Origin: Alloascoidea africana | Lineage: Eukaryota; Ascomycota; Alloascoideomycetes; Alloascoideales; Alloascoideaceae | Length of the DNA stretch: 51,579 bases | Reading direction: 5' to 3' | NCBI GenBank assembly: GCA_030581615.1 | Contig: JAKTTT010000096.1 | Span: 1 to 51,579, forward strand | Part shown: piece after piece, positions 3,539 to 46,324 of the stretch | How the letters are laid out: every line of letters begins with the position of its first letter | Position numbering within the stretch: the first letter of the stretch is position 1 | Made by a program: the position numbers and the translations under genes | Notes under the pieces: model-generated | The model's input: the letters and a program-made list of their open reading frames with translations, nothing else | Database searches by the model: none | What the model was told of the DNA's origin: nothing

Positions 3539-4452
3539 TTCTATTCTTTTTTGTTTTTGTTTTATAGGTTTCTGCTCCAGAAAGAACACCACATCTTTTT
3601 CATGGAGGATAGAGGTATTCTTATATAGGAAAGTAGTAGTAATGCTATAGAAAGACACGTTGGGATAAGAAGGAGTAACATGAGAGGAGGCTAACTGACA
3701 GGTACTGTATATGCGAGACACACCACACCGCGGAACAAGAATTTAGCGGAAGGCGATTCTCAACCAACAACGCTTTCTTAAGATGAATAGGGAAATTTGG
3801 GGGGCTATGTTGAATCCCCCGATTCTCAGAGGCGCATTGCTGTGACAAATATCAGACCGAAACGGTTCTGGTTTCTATTAATCCTGTTATAAGCCTGGAG
3901 AGATGAGATATACCAGTGCGCCTGAACCTCGTTTCCATTCCAGCCTGATCCCAAGCACGCGAGCATATATAACTTTAGCTGTTTTCATGTTTTTTTTTAC
4001 ATTAATGAGAAGACTCTCGGAAAGAGAACCAAGTTCATGGCATCGGATGAAACCACAGAAAAGCACACGAAGATACCGTTCCTAACTTTGCATCGACTTG
4101 GAGCCTGAAAAGACAAGCTCAAAAATAGAAGCTTAGAGTTAAATCTCTAAATCATTAATGTCCTACAAAACATGTGCCCTTCCATACGTGCCACATTTTA
4201 TAAATTCATGCTTGAATGATAGAATCATCTAGTGATGAGCTTTCCTCCTGCGAAACTGGACTCACCTACACCAACCATTAAGAGCCAAATCCAACATTAG
4301 ATAGTACAGAGTTTCTCCATTAGACTATATGTTCTCGTTACTAGAGCATTTTTTTAAAAAATTGGGGGTTAAAGAGCATTTGGATATCCTCCTTATGACA
4401 CCACTCTTTTTTTTCATCAAGATAAAGACAAAATCAGTAATCGATTAACAGC
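3539..4452. other. 0.9-kb intergenic region downstream of RPL24
   Basis: It must hold the RPL24 3' end and the promoter of the minus-strand ORF at 3002-3538. Short ORFs (for example 3903-4085 plus) have no recognisable features. A TATATAA-like box occurs at about 3964, without an evident gene in the plus direction. I see no RNA gene. Confidence 0.45.
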
Positions 4453-4978
4453 TTAACGGGAAGTAGCCTGGACCTTCTGGAATGCACCTTTGGCCTGCTG
4501 CTTGCTGATCTTTGAACCACCTTTGCCAGCTGATTTGGCCTTCTCGGCTCTCTTCTTGTCCTTTGCAGCCTTCTTCTTCTCCTTTTCGAGCTGAGCAGCC
4601 TCCTCACGCTGGGCCTTGCGGGCTTCGGGTCTGATAGAACGACGCTCTTTGATCAACTCCAAAGAGGCACCGACAATAGCACGCTGGTGCTTAACAGTCT
4701 TTCTGGTGCGCTTCTTGGCAACTTCCTCAGTGATACCCTTACGATGCTGTCTTCTGTAGAGAACTGTCCATGAGATTCTTCTTGGGTTCTTTCTCTGAAG
4801 GAAAAGAGAGGCAGATTTTGAGGACTGGAATCTGAAGACCTTGGAGTCACCTCTGACAAATAGTTTGCCCTAACATAAGTTAACAATCAACACTCGGTTT
4901 CTCATCTCGTCAAAATAACACACGTACTCTTCCGGGGTAAATTTTGGCACCAGAAAATGAATCAACTTCGACCTTCAT
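4453..4978 (-). CDS. RPL24: 60S ribosomal protein eL24
   Basis: Two exons: 4928-4978 (MKVEVDSFSGAKIYPGR) and 4453-4869, joined across a 58-nt intron (4870-4927) with GTACGT donor and TTAG acceptor. The product is 155 residues, the usual yeast eL24 length. Exon 2 opens with GKLFVRGDSKVFRFQSSKSA and includes RKNPRRISWT, the eL24 zinc-finger-like core region; the tail is the Lys/Ala/Glu-rich helix ending KQQAKGAFQKVQATSR. It is part of the large ribosomal subunit and contributes to inter-subunit contacts. It is transcribed divergently from RPL30, the same arrangement as S. cerevisiae YGL031C/YGL030W. The branch site is weak (TTAAC rather than CTAAC). Confidence 0.97.
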
Positions 4979-5558
4979 TGTAATCTACAGGAAACAATCT
5001 CGTTAGCAATTGTCACACGTTTTTCAAGGAACCAATGGATGTGGACGGTCAGAGAAAGGGCCAAACTCCGATTGAATGCTTAATAACACACAACACGAAA
5101 AGCTAGGAAACAAGTGTTGAAATTTCTGATCCTGGCTCTGATCTCCACCAATACCGCAATCCATCTCATCAACTCCTTGTTCATCAATGGTCGTTACATA
5201 CCTAAAACTTGCCAATGCGTGCTTGTAGAAGTTGAACTCGTTTCTCTACGTGGGAGCCTTGACTTGCCTCTTGTGCGTGGGTTACCCGCTTTTCACTTAC
5301 TATCAACCTTCCAGATTAGGAAATACCTGTGACTGCGAATAAGCGTAACAACGAGTCATCAAGCGTAACTTGGAGCACGATATCGCCTGTTTGACGATTC
5401 TTCATCAAGATCCGGGTAACCTGCTAGGATTATCGAACTATTCAAAAAGAGACTCAAGCTCTGAAACATTTTCTTTCTTCTCTACAAGTCAAAAACAATC
5501 ACATTCGACCGGAGTGCTTTAAAACTAAAAGAAAAAAAAAACATTTAAAAGCGCAGAG
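4979..5558. promoter_or_regulatory. Divergent RPL24/RPL30 promoter with two Reb1-type sites
   Basis: This 580-bp intergenic region serves two ribosomal protein genes. It carries TTACCCG at 5282-5288 and its reverse complement CGGGTAA at 5413-5419, about 130 bp apart. Both match the Reb1 core consensus (TTACCCG), known for setting nucleosome-free promoters in yeasts. No Rap1 (ACACCCATACAT-like) site was seen. The last 50 bases on the RPL30 side form one arm of the L30-binding RNA element. Assignment to Reb1 rests on consensus match only. Confidence 0.6.
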
Positions 5559-5567
5559 ATGGTCAGT
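5507..5567 (+). promoter_or_regulatory. RPL30 kink-turn autoregulatory RNA element spanning the start codon and 5' splice site
   Basis: GACCGGAGTG (5507-5516) and GCAGAGATGGTC (5553-5564) are the two strands of the kink-turn bound by L30 in S. cerevisiae, recalled from the published L30-RNA structure, and match it base for base. Pairing: GACC 5507-5510 with GGTC 5561-5564, and GTGC 5514-5517 with GCGC 5551-5554, flanking the asymmetric purine loop GGA/AGAGAT. The loop contains the ATG (5559-5561), and the stem buries the non-consensus donor GTCAGT at 5562-5567. In S. cerevisiae, L30 binding here blocks splicing and translation of its own message; the same is inferred here. Confidence 0.9.
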
Positions 5568-5973
5568 ATATACCCCCAATTTGCTATTCATTTTATACCA
5601 AAGATCCCAAACGGTTTCAAATCATTGTAGAATACTAACCTTCCAAACACAGGCACCAAAAGTTAAGAAGAATCAGGAAAACATCAACTCCAAGCTTGCT
5701 CTTGTTATCAAGTCTGGTAAATATACACTGGGATACAAGAGCACTGTCAAGGCTTTGAGACAGGGCAAGGCCAAGCTCATCATCATTGCTCAAAACACTG
5801 AGACCTTGAGAAAGTCTGAGCTTGAGTACTACGCCATGTTGTCCAAGACCAGCGTCCACTACTTCCAGGGTGGAAACAATGAGTTGGGAACTGCCTGTGG
5901 TAAATTTTTCAGAGTTGGCGTTTTGGCCATCATCAACCAAGGTGACTCTGATATCTTGTCAGTTATTAACTAG
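5559..5973 (+). CDS. RPL30: 60S ribosomal protein eL30
   Basis: Exon 1 is only the ATG (5559-5561). A 91-nt intron (5562-5652) follows, with donor GTCAGT, branch TACTAAC at 5633-5639 and acceptor ACAG; exon 2 is 5653-5973. The 107-residue product begins [20 protein letters not shown] and contains [39 protein letters not shown] and ends in [10 protein letters not shown], clear eL30 of the L7Ae/L30e RNA-binding superfamily. The atypical donor and the surrounding kink-turn imply feedback by the protein on its own pre-mRNA. It is convergent with BNA5, 86 bp downstream. Confidence 0.97.
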
Positions 5974-6059
5974 TACGTTTTGTTGTTTGTTACAAATCAA
6001 ATGTATAGTTGTATCTGTATTTAATGAATGTGAATGCATAATCACAAACACTATGGACG

Positions 6060-7445
6060 TCACTGAATTGAAGCTAGTGCTTTGTTCAGGATCTCTACCA
6101 CTGTAACAATTTCCGCAAATGTATTGTAGAGCGGAATAGGCGCAAGACGTATCACATCAGGTCTTCTTTCGTCGCCAATGACGCCGTGATCTGTGAAAAA
6201 CTTGAAGACTTTCTCCATAACCGAGTCTTGGGGTCTGGCTGGATCCACAGAGGGAAAGAAGACAAGCGAGAGCTGGGCACCACGCTCTTCGGGATTCGCC
6301 GGTGTGATGATTGTGAAACCAGGACTCGTGCTGTTCTGAGCTTTCTTCACATCTTGCACTGGGACATAGTACTTGCTGTTGGAAAGTAGACGGTAGAAAA
6401 ACTCTGTCATGGCGATACTCTTCTTTCTCAGAGGCTCAATCCCCCCTGCCTGGGCAAAGATCTCAAGCGAGGTCTTTACAGAAATGACGCTGATAACAGT
6501 TGGGTTGGATTGTCTGTAACCAAGAGCAGTTGGAGAAGGGTCAAATTGTTCACGCATCTCGAATCGATTCTCGGCCTTGTTCCCCCACCAGCCCGCCAGA
6601 CGGGGCAGATTTTGCTTGAGAAGATCTTCATGGATAAACAAACCTCCTATGGAACCAGGGCCAGAGTTGAGATACTTGTAGGTACAGAACGGAGCAAAAT
6701 CAACTTCCCAATCATGAAGTTGTAAAGGAACATTGCCCGTACAGTGGGCCAAATCCCACCCCACAACGATCTGCCCCTGACTCCTTGACTTTGCGTATTT
6801 TGTAATCTTTTCCATCTCAAAGAACTGGCCGGAATAGAACTGGATGCCAGCAAAGCATACTATTGCAATTGAATCTGCCTCCTCGTCAATTTTCTTCAAA
6901 ATGTCCTCTGTCCGGAGTACAAACTCGCCTTCTCGTGGCTTCATCCCCAGGAGGGCCTCATTGGGATCAAGACCATGTAAACTGGCCTGTTGCTGGAACG
7001 CGTAGCGGTCCGAAGGAAACGCATTCTTCTCGTATAAAATCTTGTATCTGGTCTTGGTAGGCTTGTAGAGAGCACAGAAAAGAGCATTCAGGTTGCTTGT
7101 CAAGGTCCCCAAAATTGCAACCTCCTGCTCCTTGGCACCCAACAGAGGAGCCATCAGAGGCACCAGGGTCTCGTCAAGAGTGACCCAGGGCTCGCCCGAA
7201 GAACGACTGTGGTGGGCGTTCACGGCGGTAAGAGCCCAGGCGTCGAGCTCCTCGAGCACGGCCTCTTTTGTCCGCTTGGGCATTAGTCCCAGGGAGTTTC
7301 CACACATGTAGTACGAAGGGCTGTCATCACCGTCCCTGATCCCCAGAGACGCGAACGTCGGGATGGCAAACAGATGGGCATACGACGGGTACTGCTCATC
7401 GAGCACGGCGGCCTCTGCCGCGAGCACTGCGGACGTGTCTGCCAT
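6060..7445 (-). CDS. BNA5: Kynureninase
   Basis: A 461-residue PLP enzyme that cleaves 3-hydroxykynurenine/kynurenine to 3-hydroxyanthranilate/anthranilate plus alanine in de novo NAD synthesis from tryptophan. Visible family features: YYMCGNSLGLMP at about 45-56, FPSD at 143-146, GWDLAHCTGN at 229-238 with the PLP-ring Asp, and the Schiff-base lysine in FCTYKYLNSGPG (K257). The ATG at 7445 (MADTSAVL) fits the usual yeast length of about 450. The frame stays open for 142 more codons, but that part is antisense to UME6 and unlike the family. It is head to head with UME6 (166 bp between the starts). Confidence 0.96.
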   Translation of the reverse strand: MADTSAVLAAEAAVLDEQYPSYAHLFAIPTFASLGIRDGDDSPSYYMCGNSLGLMPKRTKEAVLEELDAWALTAVNAHHSRSSGEPWVTLDETLVPLMAPLLGAKEQEVAILGTLTSNLNALFCALYKPTKTRYKILYEKNAFPSDRYAFQQQASLHGLDPNEALLGMKPREGEFVLRTEDILKKIDEEADSIAIVCFAGIQFYSGQFFEMEKITKYAKSRSQGQIVVGWDLAHCTGNVPLQLHDWEVDFAPFCTYKYLNSGPGSIGGLFIHEDLLKQNLPRLAGWWGNKAENRFEMREQFDPSPTALGYRQSNPTVISVISVKTSLEIFAQAGGIEPLRKKSIAMTEFFYRLLSNSKYYVPVQDVKKAQNSTSPGFTIITPANPEERGAQLSLVFFPSVDPARPQDSVMEKVFKFFTDHGVIGDERRPDVIRLAPIPLYNTFAEIVTVVEILNKALASIQ

Positions 7446-7611
7446 ATCGAGGGAGCCTGGCCGATCTGAAAAGTTGGAGGGAGTGGTGAAGCTGAGAGAT
7501 ACGACGGGACGGCTACAACCGCCCAACCGGGCCCGGGCAGATCTCCAACAGCCTCCTCCAAGATTTGCAACGGCTGCCCAGGATCGCTCCGTCCGCTGAC
7601 GACTCCGTGCC

Positions 7612-9387
7612 ATGTTCTCCACGACCCAGGACGTGTTTTCGTCCTCGCCCTCGGCTGGGCCCCGGATCAAGGAGCCTCGGTGCGAGTCTGTGCCGGAGCC
7701 TTCTTTAGCCGCCGCCAATGGCGCTGCGGATGCCCATGGGAAAGCGAAAGAGGCCTCTCCATCTGGTCTGGGGGACGGATCCTCGCCACTGAGTCTTCTG
7801 AACAAGGCCGATATCCCTAGACCACCGGCCCAGGAGCTTCCACTGGCCGGCTCCAGCGTGGACCCGACCAATCTCTACACTTATGACCCTGCTCCTTCCA
7901 TCTACGACGCTGTGCCTCGCACCTATGCCTGTTTCGACCACTATAGTCCAGTCAACAGCTCAATCAGACACAGCGACGACGCCAACCACAGCGCTTCTCT
8001 TCCAAAACTGCCCTCGTTTGACGTATGGGGATCCGATAATAAGCCTTTTAGCGTTATTTCCCAAAAGCCTTCAAGAATCATAGAAAGGTCTCCTTCATCC
8101 ATGGAGAACCTTGGAAACGACCACCATCCCTCAAACTTTTTCATATCGCCCTCAAAGCTGGCAAATAAAGACTGGAGCTCAGATAGCTACTCTTCCCAGA
8201 ATGACCGAGATCATGCTAGACCAACCCTGCCTAGACTGTACAACTCCAGCGATGCCGCTGGCTCTGGTGTCTCAGGCCCAGATCACACTACTTCAGCTGC
8301 AACTCTATCTTCGTTTCTTTCCTCCGAATTGAACCAATCTCAGCCCAGGTTTGTATCAAACCCCAATGGCATGGCATACGGAGCGAATAGGCCCAGCATT
8401 CGCCCTTTGAGCACTAGGCTGGGCGTGACAGAGCCCTCTATGTACAGCCTCAGTAGTGATTCTTATTATGGTGACAGGCTGCAAGCTGACTACGAGTACA
8501 CACAAGGTTTCCGCATGCGCACTCTTACAGAGAAGTTTCCCAGCGAGGCAGACGATGACAGTGGCAGCAGTGCCCGCCAGTTTCGCATAGGACCCGGGGC
8601 AGTAAAGCCCCAAAGTAAACCACTACCTAAGAAGCGGAGGCGAAAAGAAACTGGAATAGGCACGGACTCAGAGAAGGGCAGGGGCAAGGGCAAAGGAAGA
8701 GGAAAAGGAAAAGGAAAAGGCAGAGGTAAAGGCAAAGGAAAAGGAAAAGGAAAAGGGAAGGGGAAGAAGATGTATTCTCGCACGAAGAGAAGGAAGTTAC
8801 ATAATCAAATTGATGAACAAAAGCCTGAACATGATGTTGGCACAGGCGCTATGAAATTGGAGGAGAACGGTCATAAAGCACTAACAGACCGTGTTGACGA
8901 AGAAGATGAAGCAAAATCGTCAGATGACGCATCGTTAGAGACAAAAGAAGATAACGGGGAGCTTTGGCTGCCCATAGGAAGATCTTCCAAGGCTAGACGA
9001 GGAGGAATTAGATCTTCCACTAGCAGTTATCGTGGAAGTCTGTCCCAAATAACCGCAGAAGGCAGATTAAGACCAACCAGAAGTTGTGTTCTCGAGAAGC
9101 ATGAGGAAATACAACATGATGATGTCAAAAGCTCACCAGTGTCCTCGCGAAAGGTGAACAAACCTCGCTCTAAAAGCGGCTGCTGGACATGCCGACTTCG
9201 AAGGAAAAAATGCACCGAGGAAAAACCATTTTGCAATCAATGCTTGCGACTTGGTCTTGAATGTGATGGCTATTCCGCAGACCGGCCTGAATTTATGCAA
9301 AACCCTGTAAAGTCTCGCAAAAAATTGGACGAGATTAAGATAATTACAGGAGGAAAACGCCGGGCGTTTATGAAAAAGAAAAGATGA
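7612..9387 (+). CDS. UME6: Ume6-type transcription factor with C-terminal zinc cluster
   Basis: A 591-residue protein with its Zn2Cys6 cluster at the far C-terminus: cysteines 524, 527, 534, 541, 544 and 551 in C-x2-C-x6-C-x6-C-x2-C-x6-C spacing. The flanks SGCWTCRLRRKKCTEEKP and RPEFMQNP...KKLDEIK...RRAFMKKKR match the C-terminus of S. cerevisiae Ume6. That protein binds URS1 sites and recruits Sin3-Rpd3 and Isw2 to repress early meiotic and metabolic genes, switching to activation with Ime1. The rest is Ser/Pro/Asn-rich and disordered, apart from a Lys/Arg-Gly tract at about 354-386. It is shorter than Ume6 of S. cerevisiae (836 residues). A URS1-like TAGCCGCCG lies inside the gene at 7706-7714. 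Confidence 0.9.
   Translation: MFSTTQDVFSSSPSAGPRIKEPRCESVPEPSLAAANGAADAHGKAKEASPSGLGDGSSPLSLLNKADIPRPPAQELPLAGSSVDPTNLYTYDPAPSIYDAVPRTYACFDHYSPVNSSIRHSDDANHSASLPKLPSFDVWGSDNKPFSVISQKPSRIIERSPSSMENLGNDHHPSNFFISPSKLANKDWSSDSYSSQNDRDHARPTLPRLYNSSDAAGSGVSGPDHTTSAATLSSFLSSELNQSQPRFVSNPNGMAYGANRPSIRPLSTRLGVTEPSMYSLSSDSYYGDRLQADYEYTQGFRMRTLTEKFPSEADDDSGSSARQFRIGPGAVKPQSKPLPKKRRRKETGIGTDSEKGRGKGKGRGKGKGKGRGKGKGKGKGKGKGKKMYSRTKRRKLHNQIDEQKPEHDVGTGAMKLEENGHKALTDRVDEEDEAKSSDDASLETKEDNGELWLPIGRSSKARRGGIRSSTSSYRGSLSQITAEGRLRPTRSCVLEKHEEIQHDDVKSSPVSSRKVNKPRSKSGCWTCRLRRKKCTEEKPFCNQCLRLGLECDGYSADRPEFMQNPVKSRKKLDEIKIITGGKRRAFMKKKR
8671..8770 (+). repeat. Lys/Arg-Gly coding repeat with near-pure purine strand
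   Basis: About 100 bp within UME6 made of GGN AAR-type hexamers, encoding alternating Gly with Lys or Arg (residues 354-386). On the plus strand there are uninterrupted purine runs at 8692-8720 and 8734-8770. Such tracts can form triplex DNA and slip in replication; the encoded run is a likely non-specific DNA- or RNA-binding or nuclear-import segment. Confidence 0.8.
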
Positions 9388-23874: not shown

Positions 23875-26800
23875 TCATACAGGTAATTCAATCACTTTTG
23901 ATTCCGAAATCCAGAATTCGAAATTGTTTATCATAAACATTGTGATTATACCTATGATTAAAACTCCAAAACTTATGGACATTACCGATTGCATCATTGT
24001 GGCAATTTTGCTTTGTTCATTCATTTTTTCCACAAACTTGAATCGCCAATAGTTGACCATTTCAACATAGGAATTGAAATAATCAGTAATGTCGGAACTT
24101 GATTGTAAGTAAAAGGATCCCAAGGTTAATAAAACCATGCTGATAAAGCTCTGTAGCCATGTCCATTCCATTACAACTTTGTCCGTTACATGGTTCCCAA
24201 AAGTTTGAATATTCTTGGTACATGATTTCCCCGCATTCACCAATCGTCGTTCTCCCTTTCTTGCCATTCTTGTTGCAAAATGCTCTTCCCGCTTTGCCTT
24301 TTCATCTTCATCTTCATCTTCTGCAGTGACAGCGGCGGCAGTCATCTTCATATTTGAAGTTATCCATTTTCGCATATGAACCAGTTTAGAATCTGGATCT
24401 GATAAAGGTGAAGTCGAGGAAAGTGATATGGTGCTTGTTGAAGATGTACTATCTCCATCCTTTTCAGTGGTTTGTTCTATAGTCTCCTCACCATTACTAT
24501 CACCGAAAAGAAGTCTTGATTTGCTCTCTTGTTTCAAACCAAAACCTTTCGTTTCCATATGTACCACAGAAGAGATCTGATCATTATCTGTACCATCATC
24601 ATCATCGCTATTTCCAAATAATGGAGAATGCGTTAAAGAGGATTTGGAATGTTCAGGATGGTTATAAAGATGTTTCCTATCCAGATTACGAATAGGTAGA
24701 TCGGTGGAATAGAGATATAAAAACCGTTGTCTAGGGTTTTTTGCCAATCTGCTTGAGGACAAACTATTTCTCTTTGATTTATAATGTGGATGTTTCTTGA
24801 TATTTCCAGCAGTAGTGGTTGTACTGAGGAGATGTGGTTGACCAGAATGATTCAACATTTCGAGAGTACTTTGCAATTGAGCATTTGTCTTTGCATAGTT
24901 TAAACTGATATCTTCAGCAGCTTTGACCCGTTTTTCGAGTAAATGAAGTTGACATTTGGATGATTCGAGATCCATAAACAACTGTTCCAATTTAGAAGCA
25001 GAAATTGTTCTCAAATTGTTATCCCGAGCGGTGGTCACTAATCGATCAGATGAAGGACTTGACGACAAGTCATCATCATCATCATCATCATCATTTGCAA
25101 ATTCATCATATTCCACGTCCGCTTCATTTTCTTCTTCAAAATGAGAAGCTCGAGAAATGGCAGAATGATGTTTCAACATTTCATGTTCGCTAATTGGTGA
25201 ATCAACACCAGGTAACTGGGGTTCTTCTTCTTCTTCATCATCATCTCTTTCAAGTTCATAATTTGGATTATTATTGGCACCAAATTTGAAAGAATAATAA
25301 ATATCCAAATCTTTTGAATTTGAATTTTCGGTTGAATTTGGTTGGGAAAAAGACAATGGATGGCGACCCAAAGTTTGAGTTCCTTTCTCTTCTTGGGTCT
25401 GTTTTTTCCTCAATCTCTGTAAATCCAAAGTATCCTGTTTTTGTTTCAAAGTTTCGAATTTTTGTCTTTGATTACTCAATTTCTCCTCCATTTCCACCGC
25501 CTGTCTTTTATAAAGATCCACTTCTCTTTGAATATCGAACAACGATTCATTCAACAACATGACTTGTTTATTTTTCTCCTCGAGTTCTTTCTCCTTTTGT
25601 AACATTTTCTGTTCCAAAATTGCAGTTGAATCGATTTGTTCCTGTAATAGAGAATTGTATTCCATTTTTTTACCTTTAAAGCCGGTCAAATAGGTCTCGA
25701 CACTTTCAAGCTTCAAGTTTTCTAATCTGGATTTATGGATTTCTTCCAATAGTAGACGAATTGTGGTCTCAATAGGAGTGGAACTTCCTATTCCCGAATT
25801 CATAAACAAACCAGCGACGGAGTTTTGGGGTAAACCAAGAGCAATCTCTTCAAGTGCTTGGTTATCGCCTCCTACACCAAACAGCACGGAATCGAGACCG
25901 CTCCCAAAATGCGCATTATTCCTTTCATTTTTCGCATCAGTGAGACCAGTTTTAGCTGCTCCCGCAGCCGCAGCCGCAGCCGCAGCCACTGCCGCGTGAC
26001 CTTCATCAGCAGTGGCGGTCAAAGGAGAAGCAGATTGCTGATGTTGATGCTGATGGGTTGGATTGGTGGTGGTGGTGGGTTTCAAAGGCACTATTTTGAT
26101 TCGCTCAATTCTTGCTGTGATTTTTTTATGTGCCAAAGTCTTTTCATCGTCACTTTTAATGTCTATACCCAGCTCGAGAACGTCATTCTCGAATAGTTGA
26201 TGGGGTTGACTTTCTTGATTATCGCCACTTAGTCTAACGCCGTTAACGTAGGTGCCATTAGAAGACTTTGTATCCTTGATGAACAGCCTCCCACTTGTCT
26301 TGTCAACCCAGCATTCAGCATGTTGGCGGGACAAAACTCTTGAATCAAAGTACCCGTTATCTGTTCTAGGAATGGAACGAGCGTTTGTTTGACGACCCAA
26401 TTTGAGAACGCTTGGGTAGAAAGGCACAATGAGGGTTTTTTTTTCAAACGTTTCGTTTAAGGAGGAGAGAATCATGGTGTATGCGACCTGGTTTCTGCTT
26501 GCCGGAGAAGGCCGCAGAACCATGGTGGCAGCAGAAGGCGTGATGGAGGAGGATGACGAGGGTAGAGAAGAAGAAGATGATGATGACACAGAAGATCTGG
26601 AATTTGCTCCTAGGGTCAAAAAATATGTGAGTTAGTAGGGAGATCCATGACGAGATGCAGCGAGACCCAGCGGTACGAAATGGAATAGCTTAAAAGAAAG
26701 AGGAAGAGACATACTTTTTCTGCCAGGCGGCCGTTGGGAAGGAGTGGAAGATGCGAAACTGGGGGGTTCTTGATGAGACTGGAATCGAGAAGGTGGTCGT

Positions 26801-27447
26801 TGGAGAGGCTTTTGCTGCTGGAGCTGTTGCTGATGCTGAAGCTGAAGCTGATGCTGATGTAGCTGTGGGTTCGAGTTTGAGTTTGAGTGTTGGAGTTGTT
26901 GCTGAGAGTCCAGTTGAAGATGAGAGGGCAGAACAGGATCTCTAGTGTTGTTGATGATGGAGTTGTGGATCTGGACCTGTGGTTGAGACTTTTCTGCAGC
27001 AAACACATCCATCGAATCTTTGACAGGGGTACTTGGGGGGTGATTTCCCAGGGCTCTGGAGCTGTTTTGGGATTTGGTCTGGTCTGCAGACTCACACTCG
27101 GGCATTGGCATTATCTCCAGATGAGTGTCAGTGGTGGTGGAGGAGTCGTCTGCAAATAGAAGGCTAGGGGATGCAGAGGAACCGTTTTGCAGGGTCTTTA
27201 TCTTTTGGTTGATTCTTGGGTATGTGGGGTTTGGAGCGGGCAGAAAGGCGCGGGACCGTTCCAGAGGAGACTGGAGAGACAGCTGTTCGTGCTCTGGAAT
27301 GGTTGGTGTGTCGGGATGGGATAGCTCACGCGAGGTGTTGGAGTTGGTGCCTGAGCCAGTGCCAGTGGAACAGTTGGAGGAACAGTTGGAGGTGGTGGAC
27401 GGGGCCGGGACGCCCACGCCCATAGCCATGCCGATGCTCATGCTCAT
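23875..27447 (-). CDS. FAR10: FHA-domain tail-anchored protein, Far10/Vps64 (SLMAP) type
   Basis: Two exons: 26715-27447 and 23875-26609, split by a 105-nt intron with GTATGT donor, TACTAAC branch (about 26631-26637) and CCTAG acceptor; phases agree. The protein has 1155 residues. Exon 1 encodes a disordered Ser/Pro/Gln-rich arm with Gln-His runs. The FHA domain is at about 303-396: LKLGRQTN, VLSRQHAE (S338, R339, H341), DTKSSNGTYVNG, LELGID. Coiled coils, acidic runs and a C-terminal hydrophobic anchor (SISFGVLIIGIITMFMINN) follow. This matches Far10/Vps64, the SLMAP-like subunits of the STRIPAK-related Far complex at the ER/nuclear envelope (pheromone arrest, TORC2 antagonism). It is single-copy here; S. 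cerevisiae has two from genome duplication. Confidence 0.9.
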
Positions 27448-27832
27448 GGTCGTGCTGGTGCTGGTGCTGGTGCTCGTGCTGAAGCTGGTGTTGAAGCTGA
27501 AGCTGGTACTGGTACTCGTGCTCCAGGCCTGGTCGCGCTGTAAGGCCTGCTCCGGGGGTCGTGGACGAGGACTAGGAGGTCAAGTCCAGCTGGAAAAGGC
27601 CCGCGCGCCTTGCACACGCCTGTCGGAGAATACACCCAGACGCCCAGGCTCACTCACGCACACGCACACGTGAATGTCACATTCACGTGTGTGTGCCCGT
27701 GTCACATGGTACAGCCACGTGACACATCAGGTGACACGGGCGAACCCGCACCCGCACACACTCGTGTGGTGTGTGCCCCGGTCCTCCCACTGGCTCTTCG
27801 ATCGCAGCCCGCGACTCTCCTTCCTCTCCATC
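27448..27832. promoter_or_regulatory. Shared promoter of the divergent FHA genes with E-box dyad
   Basis: 385 bp between the ATGs of FAR10 (27447) and the DMA gene (27833). It has three CACGTG boxes (27667-27672, 27684-27689, 27716-27721) and GTCACATG at 27701-27708. The last CACGTG (as GTCACGTG on the minus strand) and GTCACATG both fit the Cbf1/CDEI consensus RTCACRTG. The first two lie in a 13-bp perfect inverted repeat (27665-27677 and 27679-27691) centred on 27678. The FAR10-proximal 110 bp are GGTGCT/GAAGCT hexamer repeats. Binding by Cbf1 or another bHLH factor is inferred. Confidence 0.6.
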
Positions 27833-28036
27833 ATGATCCCCTTTGTCACCGCCCAGGCCTCGTCCTCGTCCTCGTCCACGGGCCCGTCCTCGTCCTCGTC
27901 CCGCCACCAGACCCTCGCGGCCTCGGCCCATGACTCTGCCCAGCACCCGCCGTCCCGCGCACGACGGCTCTCGCGGCTCTCGCTGTCGACCGTCGCCCAT
28001 CTGGCCTCCCGGGCCTCTGCCAGCAACTCCAGCTCC

Positions 28037-28067
<31 letters not shown>

Positions 28068-30289
28068 GCAACGCCCCCGAGCTGCTCGCGCCCCAGGACC
28101 TCGCAACCCCCCAGCTCCCGCCGCCCAGCTCGTCGGCCGAACGCTCGCTGACCGCGGGCTCGTCGCACAGCTCGGCCAGCGGAGGCTTTTCCACCTGGTC
28201 TCGCAACTTTCTGTCACGCTCCTACTCCCACGGCAACATTCTGACGGCCATCATGCCCTCGCGCTCGTCCACCGCAAACACCGGCCCCAGCTCCAGCTTC
28301 AACTCCCAGACGTCGCCGCCTCGATCTGCTGCCCAGCTACGCCACGGCAGAAGTGCCTTGAGCCCGTCCGTGCCGCCGCTGGACGCTCCCGCAAATCTCG
28401 ATGCCCCCCTGCTCGCGAGAAGCCCCAACCATGACCTCTCCAATAATACCAATAATATCACTTCCACAACTGCAACTGCAACCGCAACCGCAACCGCAAC
28501 TGCCAGCTCTTCTCTCCCGCTGCCGGATTCCTACTCTCCTCTGCCCTCGCCCTCAAACGAAACCCCCTTCGCAAACGACATTTCCACCTTTTCAAGTGCC
28601 ACGCCCGAATTGGCTGCTCCCGGAATCTCCCAAACCCCTGGTGCCGCCACCGCTCAACCCCCCAAACCAAACCAAACCCAAAAACAAAAGCAAAAGCAGA
28701 AGCAAAAGCAAAAATATTCCATCAGATTGTCCCCCTTCATAGATCACTCCTCTTCAACGCCTGCCCTCTACTTTGGCCCCATCAAGCGCAAAGCTGTTTC
28801 AAACACCCTCATCAGCATCGGAAGGAGTACCGATCGGAATAAACACCGCGTCAGCTCCAACAATGACTCCAACGCCTCTGCCCACATTCCTGGCGACCCC
28901 ATCACTTTCAAATCAAAAGTCGTTAGCAGAACCCATGCCGAACTGACCGTAGATCCAAACGGCCAGTGGCTCATACGTGATGTCAAATCCAGTAGCGGCA
29001 CTTTTGTAAACCATATCCGCCTTAGTCCCGCCGGCGTCGAAAGCGACTATCTTGCCTTGAAAGACGGCGATTTACTACAATTGGGCATCGATTTCCGTGG
29101 CGGAAATGCTGACATCTACAAATGTGTAAAACTAAAAGTAGAGTTGAATCGTTCTTGGAAAAGATCAAAATCTCAATTCAACGTTACCGCTTTAAGCAAA
29201 TTAAAACGACTCGCTCTCGAAAACACCCAACAAGAATTGCAAAATGAAACAATGGTGAAAAAAGATGATCCATGTATGGAATGCTCCATCTGTCTGATGA
29301 AAATCTCCGCATATCAACCTTTGTTCTTTGCTCCTTGCTCCCATTGTTGGCATTACAAGTGTATACGGCCTCTGGTGGTGAAATCATACCCCCATTTTAG
29401 TTGTCCAAATTGTAGAGCAATTTTCAACCTTGAAGCAGAAGGTGATATCGAAGGAAGTGAAAGTGAAAGCGAAATTGAAAATGAAAATGAAAATGAAAGT
29501 GAAAACGAGAGTGAAAGTGGAAATGAAAATGAAAATGAACATGAGAGTGAAAGTGGGAACGAGAGCGAAAATGAATGCGTGGGTGAGAGTGAAAGTGCAA
29601 GTGCAAGTGAAAGCGAAGCCCGACGTGATCAAGTTGGAAGCGATAGTAGAAATGAATATGATGAAACACAGGGAAATATCGTCACTCGGTCCACAAGCAT
29701 AGAGCCTGCAAATGGTCCACACGACATGAATCGAAACAGTGGCTCGGATGTCAATAGACCAACAGTCCACATCTCGTCTGCCTGTTTTGACGATGATCAA
29801 TATCAAGATCAAGATCAAGGGTCTTCTGCACGTTTGTCCAATCACAGACAACAACCTTCTTGTTCAACAGCGGTTCCTCATTTAACTGAAACTGGTCACA
29901 GTCCTATAGGCTCAAATTCACTCTTTATCTCAGAATTGGAACCTCAACCTTTGCAAGAAACTTCCGCTGGTCAATCTCTAGCAGTTGCACCTATTCCCGT
30001 CTCTTCTCAACAGGAAGCGGTTATCATGTCGAGATCCCCAGTAAAATCAGATATAAGCTCAACATCTGATTCAGAAAACAACTACAATGTTCCTTCCTCA
30101 GCATCAGAACAATCAATTGAAGATCCTGGATTACCAAATGCACATCATGCATCCACCACCACCACGACAAGTCCAAATCTACAAAATTTAGAAAACGTTT
30201 CTTCGGATCTTTCCTCAAATTCAAATTCTCAGTCTTCTCAGTCTAACCTTGATGATCTGACACATCCACAAAAGCGAGAAAATCTCTGA
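27833..30289 (+). CDS. DMA1: FHA-RING ubiquitin ligase, Dma1/Dma2 type
   Basis: An 818-residue protein from the ATG at 27833. A long Ser/Thr/Pro-rich arm with Asn and Gln-Lys runs precedes the FHA domain (about 320-435: ISIGRSTD, VVSRTHAE, DVKSSSGTFVN, LQLGID). The RING follows at 484-527: ECSICLMKIS...PCSHCWHYKCIRPL...SCPNCR, whose spacing and the trailing NLEAE match Dma1/Dma2. These E3 ligases (Chfr/RNF8-like) control septin rings and spindle position, and reach targets through phospho-threonine. The tail has an acidic Glu-Ser/Glu-Asn repeat. An ATG at 27674 would add 53 residues but lies in the loop of the promoter dyad, so it was not used. The first half is GC-rich. Confidence 0.92.
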
Positions 30290-43116: not shown

Positions 43117-44443
43117 CTTAGACAAAACTAGTGGCATAAAGAGGGTTAGTATCGACAGAGAAAAAATTGAAAAAACTTCGAATAGGAGGAGGAAAAGAGT
43201 TATGGGGTCGGGAACAAGCACATTGCCACAAGTGAACAGGTCCAAAAGGACGGTACTGTTATAAGAGATCATTCCGAAAGGAGGCATTTCATAATGACAT
43301 TCTTGAAACTTGAGGTTGTGTTGGGTAAGTGTTTTGAGACCCGGAGAAGAAGGGTCATGTAGTGGTGAGGGCAAAAACCACGTATTGGTGCACCGGTGAT
43401 TTGGAAGAGATTTGTGAGCTATCTCCCGGAAGCCTGGGCCCAGCCCACGACCTTGCGATCTCTATTGAGCAGAGCTTGGATGGCTTCATAGATATGTGAT
43501 TGCGATGCCAACGGTGACCCTTTGCGGCTCTTCTGGAGATGGAATGAGTCCGTGCCACAGGGCTGTTCTGACGACTCCAAGCCCCAATCCCATGTCGACA
43601 ACAGAGCTCTTGGGAGGAGCTGGAAGGGGACAACTCCGTGTAAAAAATAAAACCGACGAGCGCTTTGTATCGCAGTACTTACAAGTTTCCTTTTACCTCT
43701 AACACCGTGATGGGCTGTGGTGGAAAAGGAGTAAAAGAGAGTGGCTAACAGAGTGTTTGTGGTGGTGTAGCAGGAACACCAGTATAGTGGAGCCTGTTGT
43801 GGTTTAGTGTAGAAAGTTAGGCAGGTTAACATCGGGGGAGCACACCACCACGTCTACGGGCCTACTTGCTCGCGGGCCAGTCCAGGTGCTCAGGACATGG
43901 CGGACTAAGAGAAGAGAAGGCATTCAGGCCGGCTTCAATGGGACAGGCCCCAGGAGACGGGGCCCAGTGCGTGGAGCTGGAAGAGGCCCAGTAGGCACCG
44001 GAAGCCGCGAGGGCTCCTGCTCCCCGGGCAGGCTCGGTTCTAAACTCTACGACGCCCAATTCGCAAGAAGCCGCCTGGCGGGCCCGAGCAACACAGACCT
44101 CGACCGCCAGCAGCAAACGGCCACGCGAATTCGCCCGGCTCCAAACCGTCTTGTCAAGATCATGTCCCTCTCGCTGCCCTGATGACTGTGTGTACATCTG
44201 GGAACGCCTGCGTATGTCTGGGACCTGGGAAATGGGAACTGGTAGAGGTGTGCTGTGATGTTCGCAGAGGACGCCGTTGCAGCGAACATCCCAGAACAGC
44301 CGCTCCTGCCAATCATAGCGAGGGAAATCTGGCTCACGAACTTCGTAATCTCATCACCGGTGTTTTCCAAGTTCACAGGACATCACGGCGTTGCATTCAC
44401 ACGGAGCAGGAGCTGTTCGAACAAGAATCTGGATACAAGCAAA
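43117..44443. promoter_or_regulatory. Divergent NST1/NDUFB9 upstream region with a probable NST1 leader intron
   Basis: 1.3 kb with no supported protein gene. On the minus strand, TACTAAC at 43145-43151 and acceptors just before the NST1 ATG define an intron 3' end; GTAAGT at 43682-43677 is a possible donor (intron about 555 nt). The segment at about 43860-44180 is clearly more GC-rich than its surroundings; ORFs there (about 100 codons on both strands) have no family features. An in-frame ATG at 44258 could extend NDUFB9 by 62 residues, but that sequence is unlike the family. Confidence 0.45.
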
Positions 44444-44934
44444 ATGTCGGCAGTCACTCCCTTCACAGAGGCGAACAAGAAGATTGTTGCATCTCTATAT
44501 CGCCGGTCACTGAGGTTGGCCTTCAGTTGGATCAATAGAAGAGATTTATACCGACAGCAGTGTGTCGAGATTAGACAGAGATTTGATGCAAACAAAGATA
44601 TTAAGGATCCTCGTCAGTTAAGAGTACGTTCAACATTCCCGTCATGTTTTTTTTTCCCCCTTGGCGCGAATTGGTCCAGCATATGCCAAGTGTGAGTGAG
44701 TGAGGCTAACAATGGACATGGTTATAGCAAGTGATTGAAGAAACAGAAGCTCTTCTTCTCAAGTACAAGCATCCCGATCCCATTATTCCCCCATGCCGAC
44801 CAGGTGGTACCAAGTACGAAAGAAACATTCCTCCTCCTACAGAAATCCGTAAGTTTGCAGAATTCTTCGTATTACCCTTTTCCTGGCACTAACCGAAGAA
44901 ATTCAAAATTATAGCCATTCCTGGAGATTACTAA
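44444..44934 (+). CDS. NDUFB9: Complex I LYR-motif subunit NDUFB9 (B22)
   Basis: Three exons: 44444-44623, 44728-44848 and 44915-44934. Introns are 104 and 66 nt, with GTACGT and GTAAGT donors and CTAAC branches (GGCTAAC at about 44705, CACTAAC at about 44888). The 106-residue product has the LYR motif at 18-20 (ASLYRRSLRLAFSWINRRDL), RFDANKDIKDPRQLR and the family C-terminus RPGGTKYERNIPPPTEIPIP. It is an accessory subunit of mitochondrial NADH:ubiquinone oxidoreductase, in the distal membrane arm where it binds acyl carrier protein (NI2M in Yarrowia). Its presence shows the species has complex I, unlike Saccharomyces. The third exon is only 20 nt including the stop. Confidence 0.95.
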
Positions 44935-45444: not shown

Positions 45445-46324
45445 ATGGATTCCCATTCAACATTTAAACCGACAAAAGCCGTCAAGCTCGTGCTTCTGGG
45501 GGAAGCAGCAGTTGGCAAGTCTTCGCTTGTTTTAAGATTTGTCAGTGATGATTTCCAGGAAAATAAAGGTATGGAAAACAGGTGGCTTTCTATGTGGCAA
45601 TTTCGGACCTGACTGGAGCTAACAATCAAACGATGCTAGAACCAACAATTGGTGCCGCTTTTCTAACACAGAGATGTAATATTGGCGACAGGACAATCAA
45701 GTTTGAAATATGGTAAGTCTTTTCCTGTTCTTTTTTTTATTGCAGGTGCATGTTTGAAGTGATTTGGATGAGAGTTGCTAAACAATGCTTAGGGACACTG
45801 CGGGTCAGGAACGATTTGCCTCTTTGGCACCGATGTATTATAGAAATGCCCAAAGTGCCCTGGTAGTTTACGACATTACCAAGCCAGGCTCTTTTATTAA
45901 AGCTCGTCACTGGGTCAAGGAACTACAACAACAGGCCACGCCCGGAATAGTGATTGCCCTTGTGGGTAACAAGTTAGACTTGGTTAATGGTGCGCCTAAT
46001 AACGAAGGTGATGAGGAAGGTGAAGAACTTAATGCAGACCAACCAAATGAATCGACTAATGGGGCAGAGGATGCCCGTAAAGTGGCTGTTGAAGAAGGCA
46101 AAAAGCTTGCTGAAGAAGAAGGATTGCTATTCTTTGAAACGTCTGCAAAAACAGGATATAATGTAAACGATGTGTTTATGTCTATTGCAGGCAAGATTCC
46201 TCAAGAGCCCAAACCCCGGGGACCTGGGGGACGAAGCGAAGGTGAGAGAAGTAGCATCGATGGTAGAGTTGACTTGACTACACCAGTGAATGCACAGAGT
46301 TCTGCTGGTGGATGTGCTTGTTAA
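45445..46324 (+). CDS. VPS21: Rab5-family GTPase Vps21
   Basis: Three exons: 45445-45568, 45640-45712 and 45793-46324, with introns of 71 and 80 nt. The 242-residue protein has GEAAVGKSS (from 19), [12 protein letters not shown] effector loop (42-53), DTAGQE (67-72), NKLD (125-128), ETSAK (181-185) and a C-terminal CAC for geranylgeranylation. Sequence such as [18 protein letters not shown] and ETSAKTG.NVNDVF is closest to Vps21/Ypt53 rather than Ypt52. It acts in Golgi-to-endosome and early endosome fusion through PI3P effectors, functionally linked to VPS34 in this window. An acidic insert of about 28 residues follows NKLDLV (131-159). The second intron has a weak branch (GCTAAAC). It lies next to PTC5 as in S. 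cerevisiae (YOR089C/YOR090C). Confidence 0.95.

What the first reader, a model, noticed from the sequence alone, without database searches (positions are those of the whole stretch)
5507..5567. Base-for-base conserved L30 autoregulatory kink-turn over the RPL30 start codon and 5' splice site
Seen: the two strands GACCGGAGTG and GCAGAGATGGTC, the one-codon first exon (ATG only) and the non-consensus donor GTCAGT. Known: in S. cerevisiae the same RNA binds L30 and represses splicing and translation. Inference: the whole switch, not just the gene, is retained in a complex I-containing, intron-richer yeast, implying strong selection on non-coding bases across deep divergence. The 35-nt loop between the arms is A-rich.
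Basis: partly seen in the sequence, partly recalled or inferred. Interest (0 to 1): 0.75.

Follow-up and report, generated by a model that had tools for sequence, protein, structure and literature searches.

The report
Twin L30 feedback switches in yeast
A yeast that seems to branch deeply carries, over the start codon and first splice site of its ribosomal protein L30 gene, the kind of RNA kink that baker's yeast uses to let L30 shut off its own production, and a second, strongly diverged copy of the gene keeps the kink through a matched pair of base changes.

Summary
At 5507-5516 and 5553-5564 lie GACCGGAGTG and GCAGAGATGGTC, flanking a 36-nt A-rich loop. They form a canonical kink-turn: 4-bp inner stem, 3-nt bulge AGA, tandem G.A/A.G, U.G at position 3, outer stem. 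The core uses the AUG and intron donor of RPL30, whose coding first exon is ATG alone. The exact pair was found once in the 23.2-Mb genome. The main new result is a second RPL30, on contig C6, beside a second RPL24. Its upstream 100 bases, loop and intron resemble the window's no more than shuffles do, yet 25 of 28 arm columns are identical. The three differences all keep pairing: G-C to A-U across the outer stem (changing donor +3 from C to U) and U.G to U-A. That is evidence from one genome for selection on the RNA structure. A single-gene tree puts the yeast outside a clade holding Saccharomycetales, CUG yeasts and Pichiales. Most likely function: the known one, excess L30 binding the kink-turn and blocking splicing, perhaps also translation. 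Binding is untested here; base-for-base identity with S. cerevisiae rests on recall. A new member of a known kind, with duplication and compensatory change as added interest.

The parts
5507..5511 (+). 5' strand of outer (NC) stem GACCG; pairs with 5560-5564
5512..5513 (+). GA on the non-bulged strand (2n, 1n) of the kink-turn core
   Evidence: sequence; position names as in PMC5061560
5514..5517 (+). 5' strand of inner (C) stem GUGC; pairs with 5551-5554
5518..5550 (+). A-rich loop between the two arms of the inner stem; three further U-A pairs are predicted in this copy, not in the C6 copy
5551..5554 (+). 3' strand of inner stem GCGC
5555..5557 (+). three-nucleotide bulge AGA (L1-L3)
   Evidence: sequence
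5558..5560 (+). G1b, A2b, U3b: the core G.A, A.G and U.G pairs; A and U belong to the start codon
   Evidence: sequence; U.G at 3b,3n is the published state of the S. cerevisiae L30 pre-mRNA (PMC5061560, passage)
5559..5561 (+). coding part of exon 1 of RPL30: ATG only
5562..5567 (+). 5' splice site GTCAGT; its first three bases pair in the outer stem
5562..5652 (+). RPL30 intron, 91 nt; retention gives 23 codons then TAG
5633..5639 (+). branch-point sequence TACTAAC
5653..5973 (+). RPL30 exon 2 with stop
4453..4978 (-). RPL24, divergent neighbour (exons 4978-4928 and 4869-4453 read by eye, intron donor GTACGT); the RPL24-RPL30 pair is duplicated on G000:C6

Best explanation
The element is the L30 autoregulatory kink-turn. 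When L30 is in excess over its rRNA sites, it binds the kink-turn in its own nascent transcript and locks the start codon and 5' splice site into the outer stem. Splicing is then held up and the retained intron runs into an early stop. In the spliced mRNA a shortened version of the same fold may also slow translation. Two RPL30 genes in this genome each carry one, so a single pool of L30 should control both. Shown here: the anatomy, its rarity in the genome, its retention in the second copy with pair-preserving changes, and the early stops. Inferred from the S. cerevisiae system: binding, splicing and translation control.
For: Arms, AUG and donor in the required register. The standard kink-turn features (definition), with U.G at 3b,3n as published for the S. 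cerevisiae L30 pre-mRNA. The second copy keeps 25 of 28 arm columns while upstream 100 bases, loop and intron match within the range of shuffles and 23 of 37 four-fold codon sites are identical. All 9 pairs form in both copies: one changed on both sides, one on one side; sliding the partners by 1-3 columns drops pairing to 17-33%. Both donors have a pyrimidine at +3, which pairs with the arm purine; 0 of 7 other introns do. The contact residue F85 (PMC3706390, passage) is kept in the window L30 and in the C6 copy (sequence). Retention gives stops after 23 and 12 codons.
Against: No binding or splicing data. With two sequences there is one compensatory pair, and the letter-shuffle control reaches every measure in 240 of 500 cases, so the weight lies on conservation, not on covariation statistics. 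For the C6 copy with flanks the predicted minimum-energy fold is a different one, z = +0.69, 143 of 200 shuffles as good; the segment bounded by its arms folds as drawn. No Rfam family matched 4000-8000 at E up to 1. After splicing the outer stem drops to 3 drawn pairs in both copies, so the translation branch may be weak. The donor +3 test is small (p = 0.028), its introns were picked by eye, and it counts duplicate genes as independent.
Confidence: 0.87

Rival explanations
1. The structure is kept for L30-independent reasons: it tunes start-codon or 5' splice-site accessibility as a plain stem, without protein feedback.
For: The outer stem covers the AUG and the donor.
Against: The non-helical core (AGA bulge, tandem G.A, U.G) is identical in both copies although a plain hairpin would not need it; it matches a published feature of the L30-bound RNA.
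Confidence: 0.06
2. The likeness of the two copies comes from recent duplication or gene conversion, not from selection on the arms.
For: The RPL24-RPL30 pair is duplicated; L24 96% and L30 93% identical.
Against: Upstream 100 bases, loop and intron are within the range of shuffles; 23 of 37 four-fold sites identical. A conversion tract limited to two short arms around a diverged loop is contrived.
Confidence: 0.04
3. Only the start-codon context and donor are constrained; the upstream arm is a promoter or leader motif and no RNA structure is involved.
For: 8 of the 28 compared columns are ATG or donor positions other than +3. The longest shared word of the leaders, 11 bases in the 5' arm, is not by itself beyond shuffles (largest 13 of 300).
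Against: The upstream 11 bases end about 40 nt before the ATG in both copies and match 10 of 11; my arithmetic on uniform bases and a register of +/-6 gives a chance of about 1e-4. The one change in it is matched by a change at donor +3.
Confidence: 0.03

Closest known systems
S. cerevisiae RPL30 (formerly RPL32) autoregulatory kink-turn (Eng and Warner 1991; Mao 1999; Chao and Williamson 2004; Macias 2008: not read, seen as references)
   Same: Same gene, same place (over AUG and 5' splice site), same U.G at 3b,3n; the 22 arm letters of the window copy are those I recall for S. cerevisiae.
   Different: Here the gene is duplicated and both copies carry the element; the C6 copy has A-U and U-A where the window has G-C and U.G; 36 or 30 nt between the quoted strands; introns of 91 and 146 nt.
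rpl30 motif of fungi (Li and Breaker 2017, PMC5640933; passages seen)
   Same: Mostly in 5' UTRs of L30 genes, with a conserved purine-rich internal loop; the same hypothesis of L30 binding.
   Different: Described as a long 5' region plus a large hairpin, 47 examples in 26 species; consensus figure and species list not seen, so whether this yeast's element belongs to it is open.
L7Ae leader kink-turns in archaea (PMC5539422, PMC6298567; abstracts and passages seen)
   Same: L7Ae-family protein binding a kink-turn in its own mRNA leader.
   Different: Reported for translation; no intron or splice site in what I saw.
RPS9A/RPS9B splicing autoregulation with cross-regulation of duplicate genes (PMC3315480; passages seen)
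   Same: Duplicate ribosomal protein genes under splicing feedback.
   Different: Different protein, different RNA structure.

Membership tests
Kink-turn (standard) | Three-nucleotide bulge followed by tandem G.A and A.G pairs between two helices | tested here: met
   AGA 5555-5557, G5558.A5513, A5559.G5512, stems 5507-5511/5560-5564 and 5514-5517/5551-5554; definition seen. Sequence pattern only, no 3D evidence
L30 autoregulatory element | Lies in the transcript of the L30 gene | tested here: met
   transcript start itself unknown
L30 autoregulatory element | Core pair 3b,3n = U.G as in the S. cerevisiae L30 pre-mRNA | tested here: met
   U5560.G5511 and the same in the C6 copy; published state seen
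L30 autoregulatory element | Covers AUG and 5' splice site | tested here: met
L30 autoregulatory element | Letters identical with S. cerevisiae | not testable with these tools
   no S. cerevisiae nucleotide record found here; a paper search for the letters showed no L30 paper by title among the 20 listed of 25; recalled only
L30 autoregulatory element | Stem pairing kept by selection | tested here: met
   two copies, 9 of 9 pairs in both, 3 changed columns all pair-preserving; only two sequences, so no formal covariation test
L30 autoregulatory element | L30 keeps the RNA-contact residue F85 | tested here: met
   alignment to the 1t0k chain sequence; residue named in PMC3706390
L30 autoregulatory element | L30 binds it; excess L30 blocks splicing and translation | not testable with these tools
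   needs the bench
Fungal rpl30 motif (PMC5640933) | Match to its consensus structure | not tested
   consensus is in a figure and supplements not seen; no Rfam hit at E up to 1 in 4000-8000, and I do not know whether Rfam holds this motif

The most novel reading that the evidence does not exclude
Two RPL30 genes on different contigs are run as one circuit by two separately evolving copies of the same splice-site switch, so L30 cross-regulates both. In each copy the third intron base is set by pairing with a 5' UTR base and not by U1: a splice donor that drifts in step with the leader. The switch would then predate the split of this lineage from the clade of Pichiales, CUG yeasts and Saccharomycetales.
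Probability: 0.5. Interest if true: 0.55.

Novelty: new member of a known kind. Interest (0 to 1): 0.42.

Why it matters
The L30 switch is a well-known case of splicing feedback, worked out in S. cerevisiae. Finding it in a lineage outside the main yeast clades would date it early. A natural compensatory pair that includes a splice-donor base is nature's own test of the outer stem. The two copies give a ready-made system to ask how a feedback loop behaves after gene duplication.

Tried and rejected
Chance occurrence: rejected. A looser 16-base core gives 3 hits in the genome: both RPL30 copies and C15:377838-377885. The third breaks the inner stem at its second pair (by eye) and fits the 0.33 expected by chance.

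The 22-base pattern in viral contigs gave 0. The RPL30 protein scan of viral contigs gave no relative.

Donor consensus by signal: in 251,579 bases, near 32 branch-like sites, GTATGT stood at 9 against 2.1 expected, GTCAGT at 3 against 1.8 and GTTAGT at 2 against 1.8. Genome-wide, GTATGT, GTCAGT and GTAAGT patterns with TACTAAC gave 33, 11 and 35 matches against 37, 30 and 62 for their reversed controls. A coding-potential scan found 0 candidates; with loosened thresholds it found 8 against 2 and 4 for two decoys, then 4 against 2 and 3 at the next threshold: too few to use, and they include T at +3. Hence the hand-spliced set of 7 introns, which is a chosen, not a random, sample.

Doubled genome: not supported by the three neighbours tested. 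Kynureninase has 1 hit; the next best to the PI3-kinase and the DEAD helicase are 34% and 36% identical over part of their length. An old whole-genome duplication that kept mainly ribosomal genes is not excluded. In 30 kb of C6 around the second locus the ORFs of 60 aa or more that match window ORFs all lie in RPL24 or RPL30, antisense and shifted frames included.

In print: the listings (titles and starts of abstracts) and the passages I opened show nothing on a duplicated L30 switch or a compensatory change in it. These searches cover open-licence papers only; the main S. cerevisiae L30 papers were not read.

RNA model R1 was built but not used, because the genome search does not take it.

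Full report
What is there. They form 9 standard pairs in two stems around a kink-turn core: bulge AGA, G5558.A5513, A5559.G5512 and U5560.G5511 (the last counted in the outer stem). The start codon supplies A2b and U3b of the core and a G of the outer stem; the first three intron bases complete that stem. Exon 1 codes for ATG alone, the intron is 5562-5652 with TACTAAC at 5633-5639, and exon 2 is 5653-5973. The protein is L30.

Chance. The exact two-strand pattern (gap 10-40) is found once in the 23.18-Mb genome, with none for the reversed control and none in 100 shuffles of the window; 8e-5 are expected.

A second copy. A protein search of the genome found 2 RPL30 loci: the window and G000:C6:299215-299523, 93% identical over the matched part. 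The C6 locus also starts with ATG and an intron (donor GTTAGT, branch sequence TGCTAAC, 146 nt) and carries AACCGGAGTG and GCACAGAGATGGTT. The divergent neighbour RPL24 is duplicated too (96% over 138 residues); in the 30 kb of C6 compared, no other gene of the window is matched by an ORF of at least 60 residues. Three other window genes have no second close copy. So this is a duplication of a gene pair or the remnant of an older, larger one, not a doubled assembly.

Selection on the RNA. The upstream 100 bases (57 of 88 aligned identical), loop (19 of 30) and intron (57 of 83) of the two copies lie a little above the shuffled means but within their range, and 23 of 37 four-fold codon sites are identical. 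The longest shared word of the whole leader, 11 bases, lies in the 5' arm but is by itself within the range of shuffles (largest 13 in 300); what is not random is that both arms sit in nearly the same register to the ATG. Of 28 arm columns (11 + 17), 25 are identical. The three differences are G5507 to A with C5564 to T, a compensatory pair that includes donor position +3, and G5553 to A, which turns U.G into U-A. All 9 pairs form in both copies; with the partners slid by 1-3 columns 17-33% of cells pair. With two sequences the letter-shuffle control has no power (240 of 500 reach the observed values), so I rest the claim on conservation and on the direction of the three changes.

Folding. The window RNA prefers the drawn structure (-11.4 kcal/mol, z = -2.14). 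The C6 RNA with flanks does not (z = +0.69), although the segment bounded by its arms does (-5.2). A weak free fold that protein binding completes would be in keeping with what is reported for archaeal L7Ae leaders (abstract and passages of PMC6298567), but this is inference.

Donor. Seven introns spliced by eye (two each in the LYR and Rab genes, one in the TMA46-like gene, one in each RPL24 copy) have +3 A in 6 and G in 1; the two RPL30 donors have C and T (p = 0.028; the test counts paralogues as independent, and the sample is small and chosen). Their overall match to CAG|GTAAGT is ordinary (6 of 9 against 5-7). So the donor departs from the other introns just where the outer stem needs it. 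Wider signal-based surveys were uninformative.

Consequences. Intron retention gives a stop after 23 codons in the window copy and 12 in the C6 copy. After splicing, the outer stem keeps 3 of 5 pairs as drawn in both copies (computed -2.7 and -3.7 against -6.2 and -5.2 kcal/mol for the unspliced), so translation control is possible but should be weaker.

Where it comes from. The top RPL30 hits are Magnusiomyces (83%) and Ascoidea (84% over a slightly shorter part). In a kynureninase tree of 21 rows (the window gene and 20 proteins that I picked from 120 listed), the window gene and a metagenome sequence pair together (100/98) and fall outside a 14-row clade (98/98) of Pichiales, CUG-yeast, Phaffomycetales and Saccharomycetales rows, and apart from Geotrichum, Sugiyamaella, Trichomonascus and Nadsonia. 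The order names are mine, from the genus names; S. cerevisiae is not a row; one gene is weak evidence for placement.

Known background. In S. cerevisiae L30 binds its transcript near the 5' splice site and acts on splicing and translation (passages of PMC5755908; PMC7732827; PMC6298567). The pre-mRNA kink-turn there has U.G at 3b,3n (passage of PMC5061560). Hooks 2014 notes a regulatory feedback loop on the exon-intron boundary and reports RPL30 as apparently lost from Lachancea waltii (passage of PMC4202332). Li and Breaker report a fungal rpl30 motif, 47 examples in 26 species (passages of PMC5640933). A covariation screen of unannotated regions of five fungal genomes does not use the name RPL30 in its main text (PMC8216456). 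None of the passages seen describes a duplicated L30 switch.

Verdict. A genuine L30-type kink-turn, very probably the working autoregulatory switch, in a yeast that seems to branch deeply; ordinary in kind, made more interesting by a second copy that evolved pair-preserving changes.

Noticed in passing
window 4453-4978 (-) and G000:C6 around 300399-300812 (+): The divergent RPL24-RPL30 gene pair is duplicated; I recall the same neighbours (RPL24A-RPL30) in S. cerevisiae, so the order may be ancestral.
   Followed up: partly
G000:C6:299675-299530 (-): The C6 RPL30 intron uses branch sequence TGCTAAC where the window copy has TACTAAC; RPL7B of S. cerevisiae, also autoregulated by splicing, has the same non-consensus branch sequence (abstract of PMC12311795).
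   Followed up: no
window 44258-44934 (+): LYR-family gene (Complex1_LYR) with two introns, donors GTACGT and GTAAGT; a possible basis for 'complex I-containing', which it suggests but does not prove.
   Followed up: partly
window 45445-46324 (+): Ras-family (Rab-like by eye) GTPase split by two short introns (donors GTATGG and GTAAGT).
   Followed up: partly
window 26616-30289: Long ORFs rich in single-residue runs on both strands, with overlapping repeat-driven ORFs; one looks FHA/RING-like to my eye, untested.
   Followed up: no
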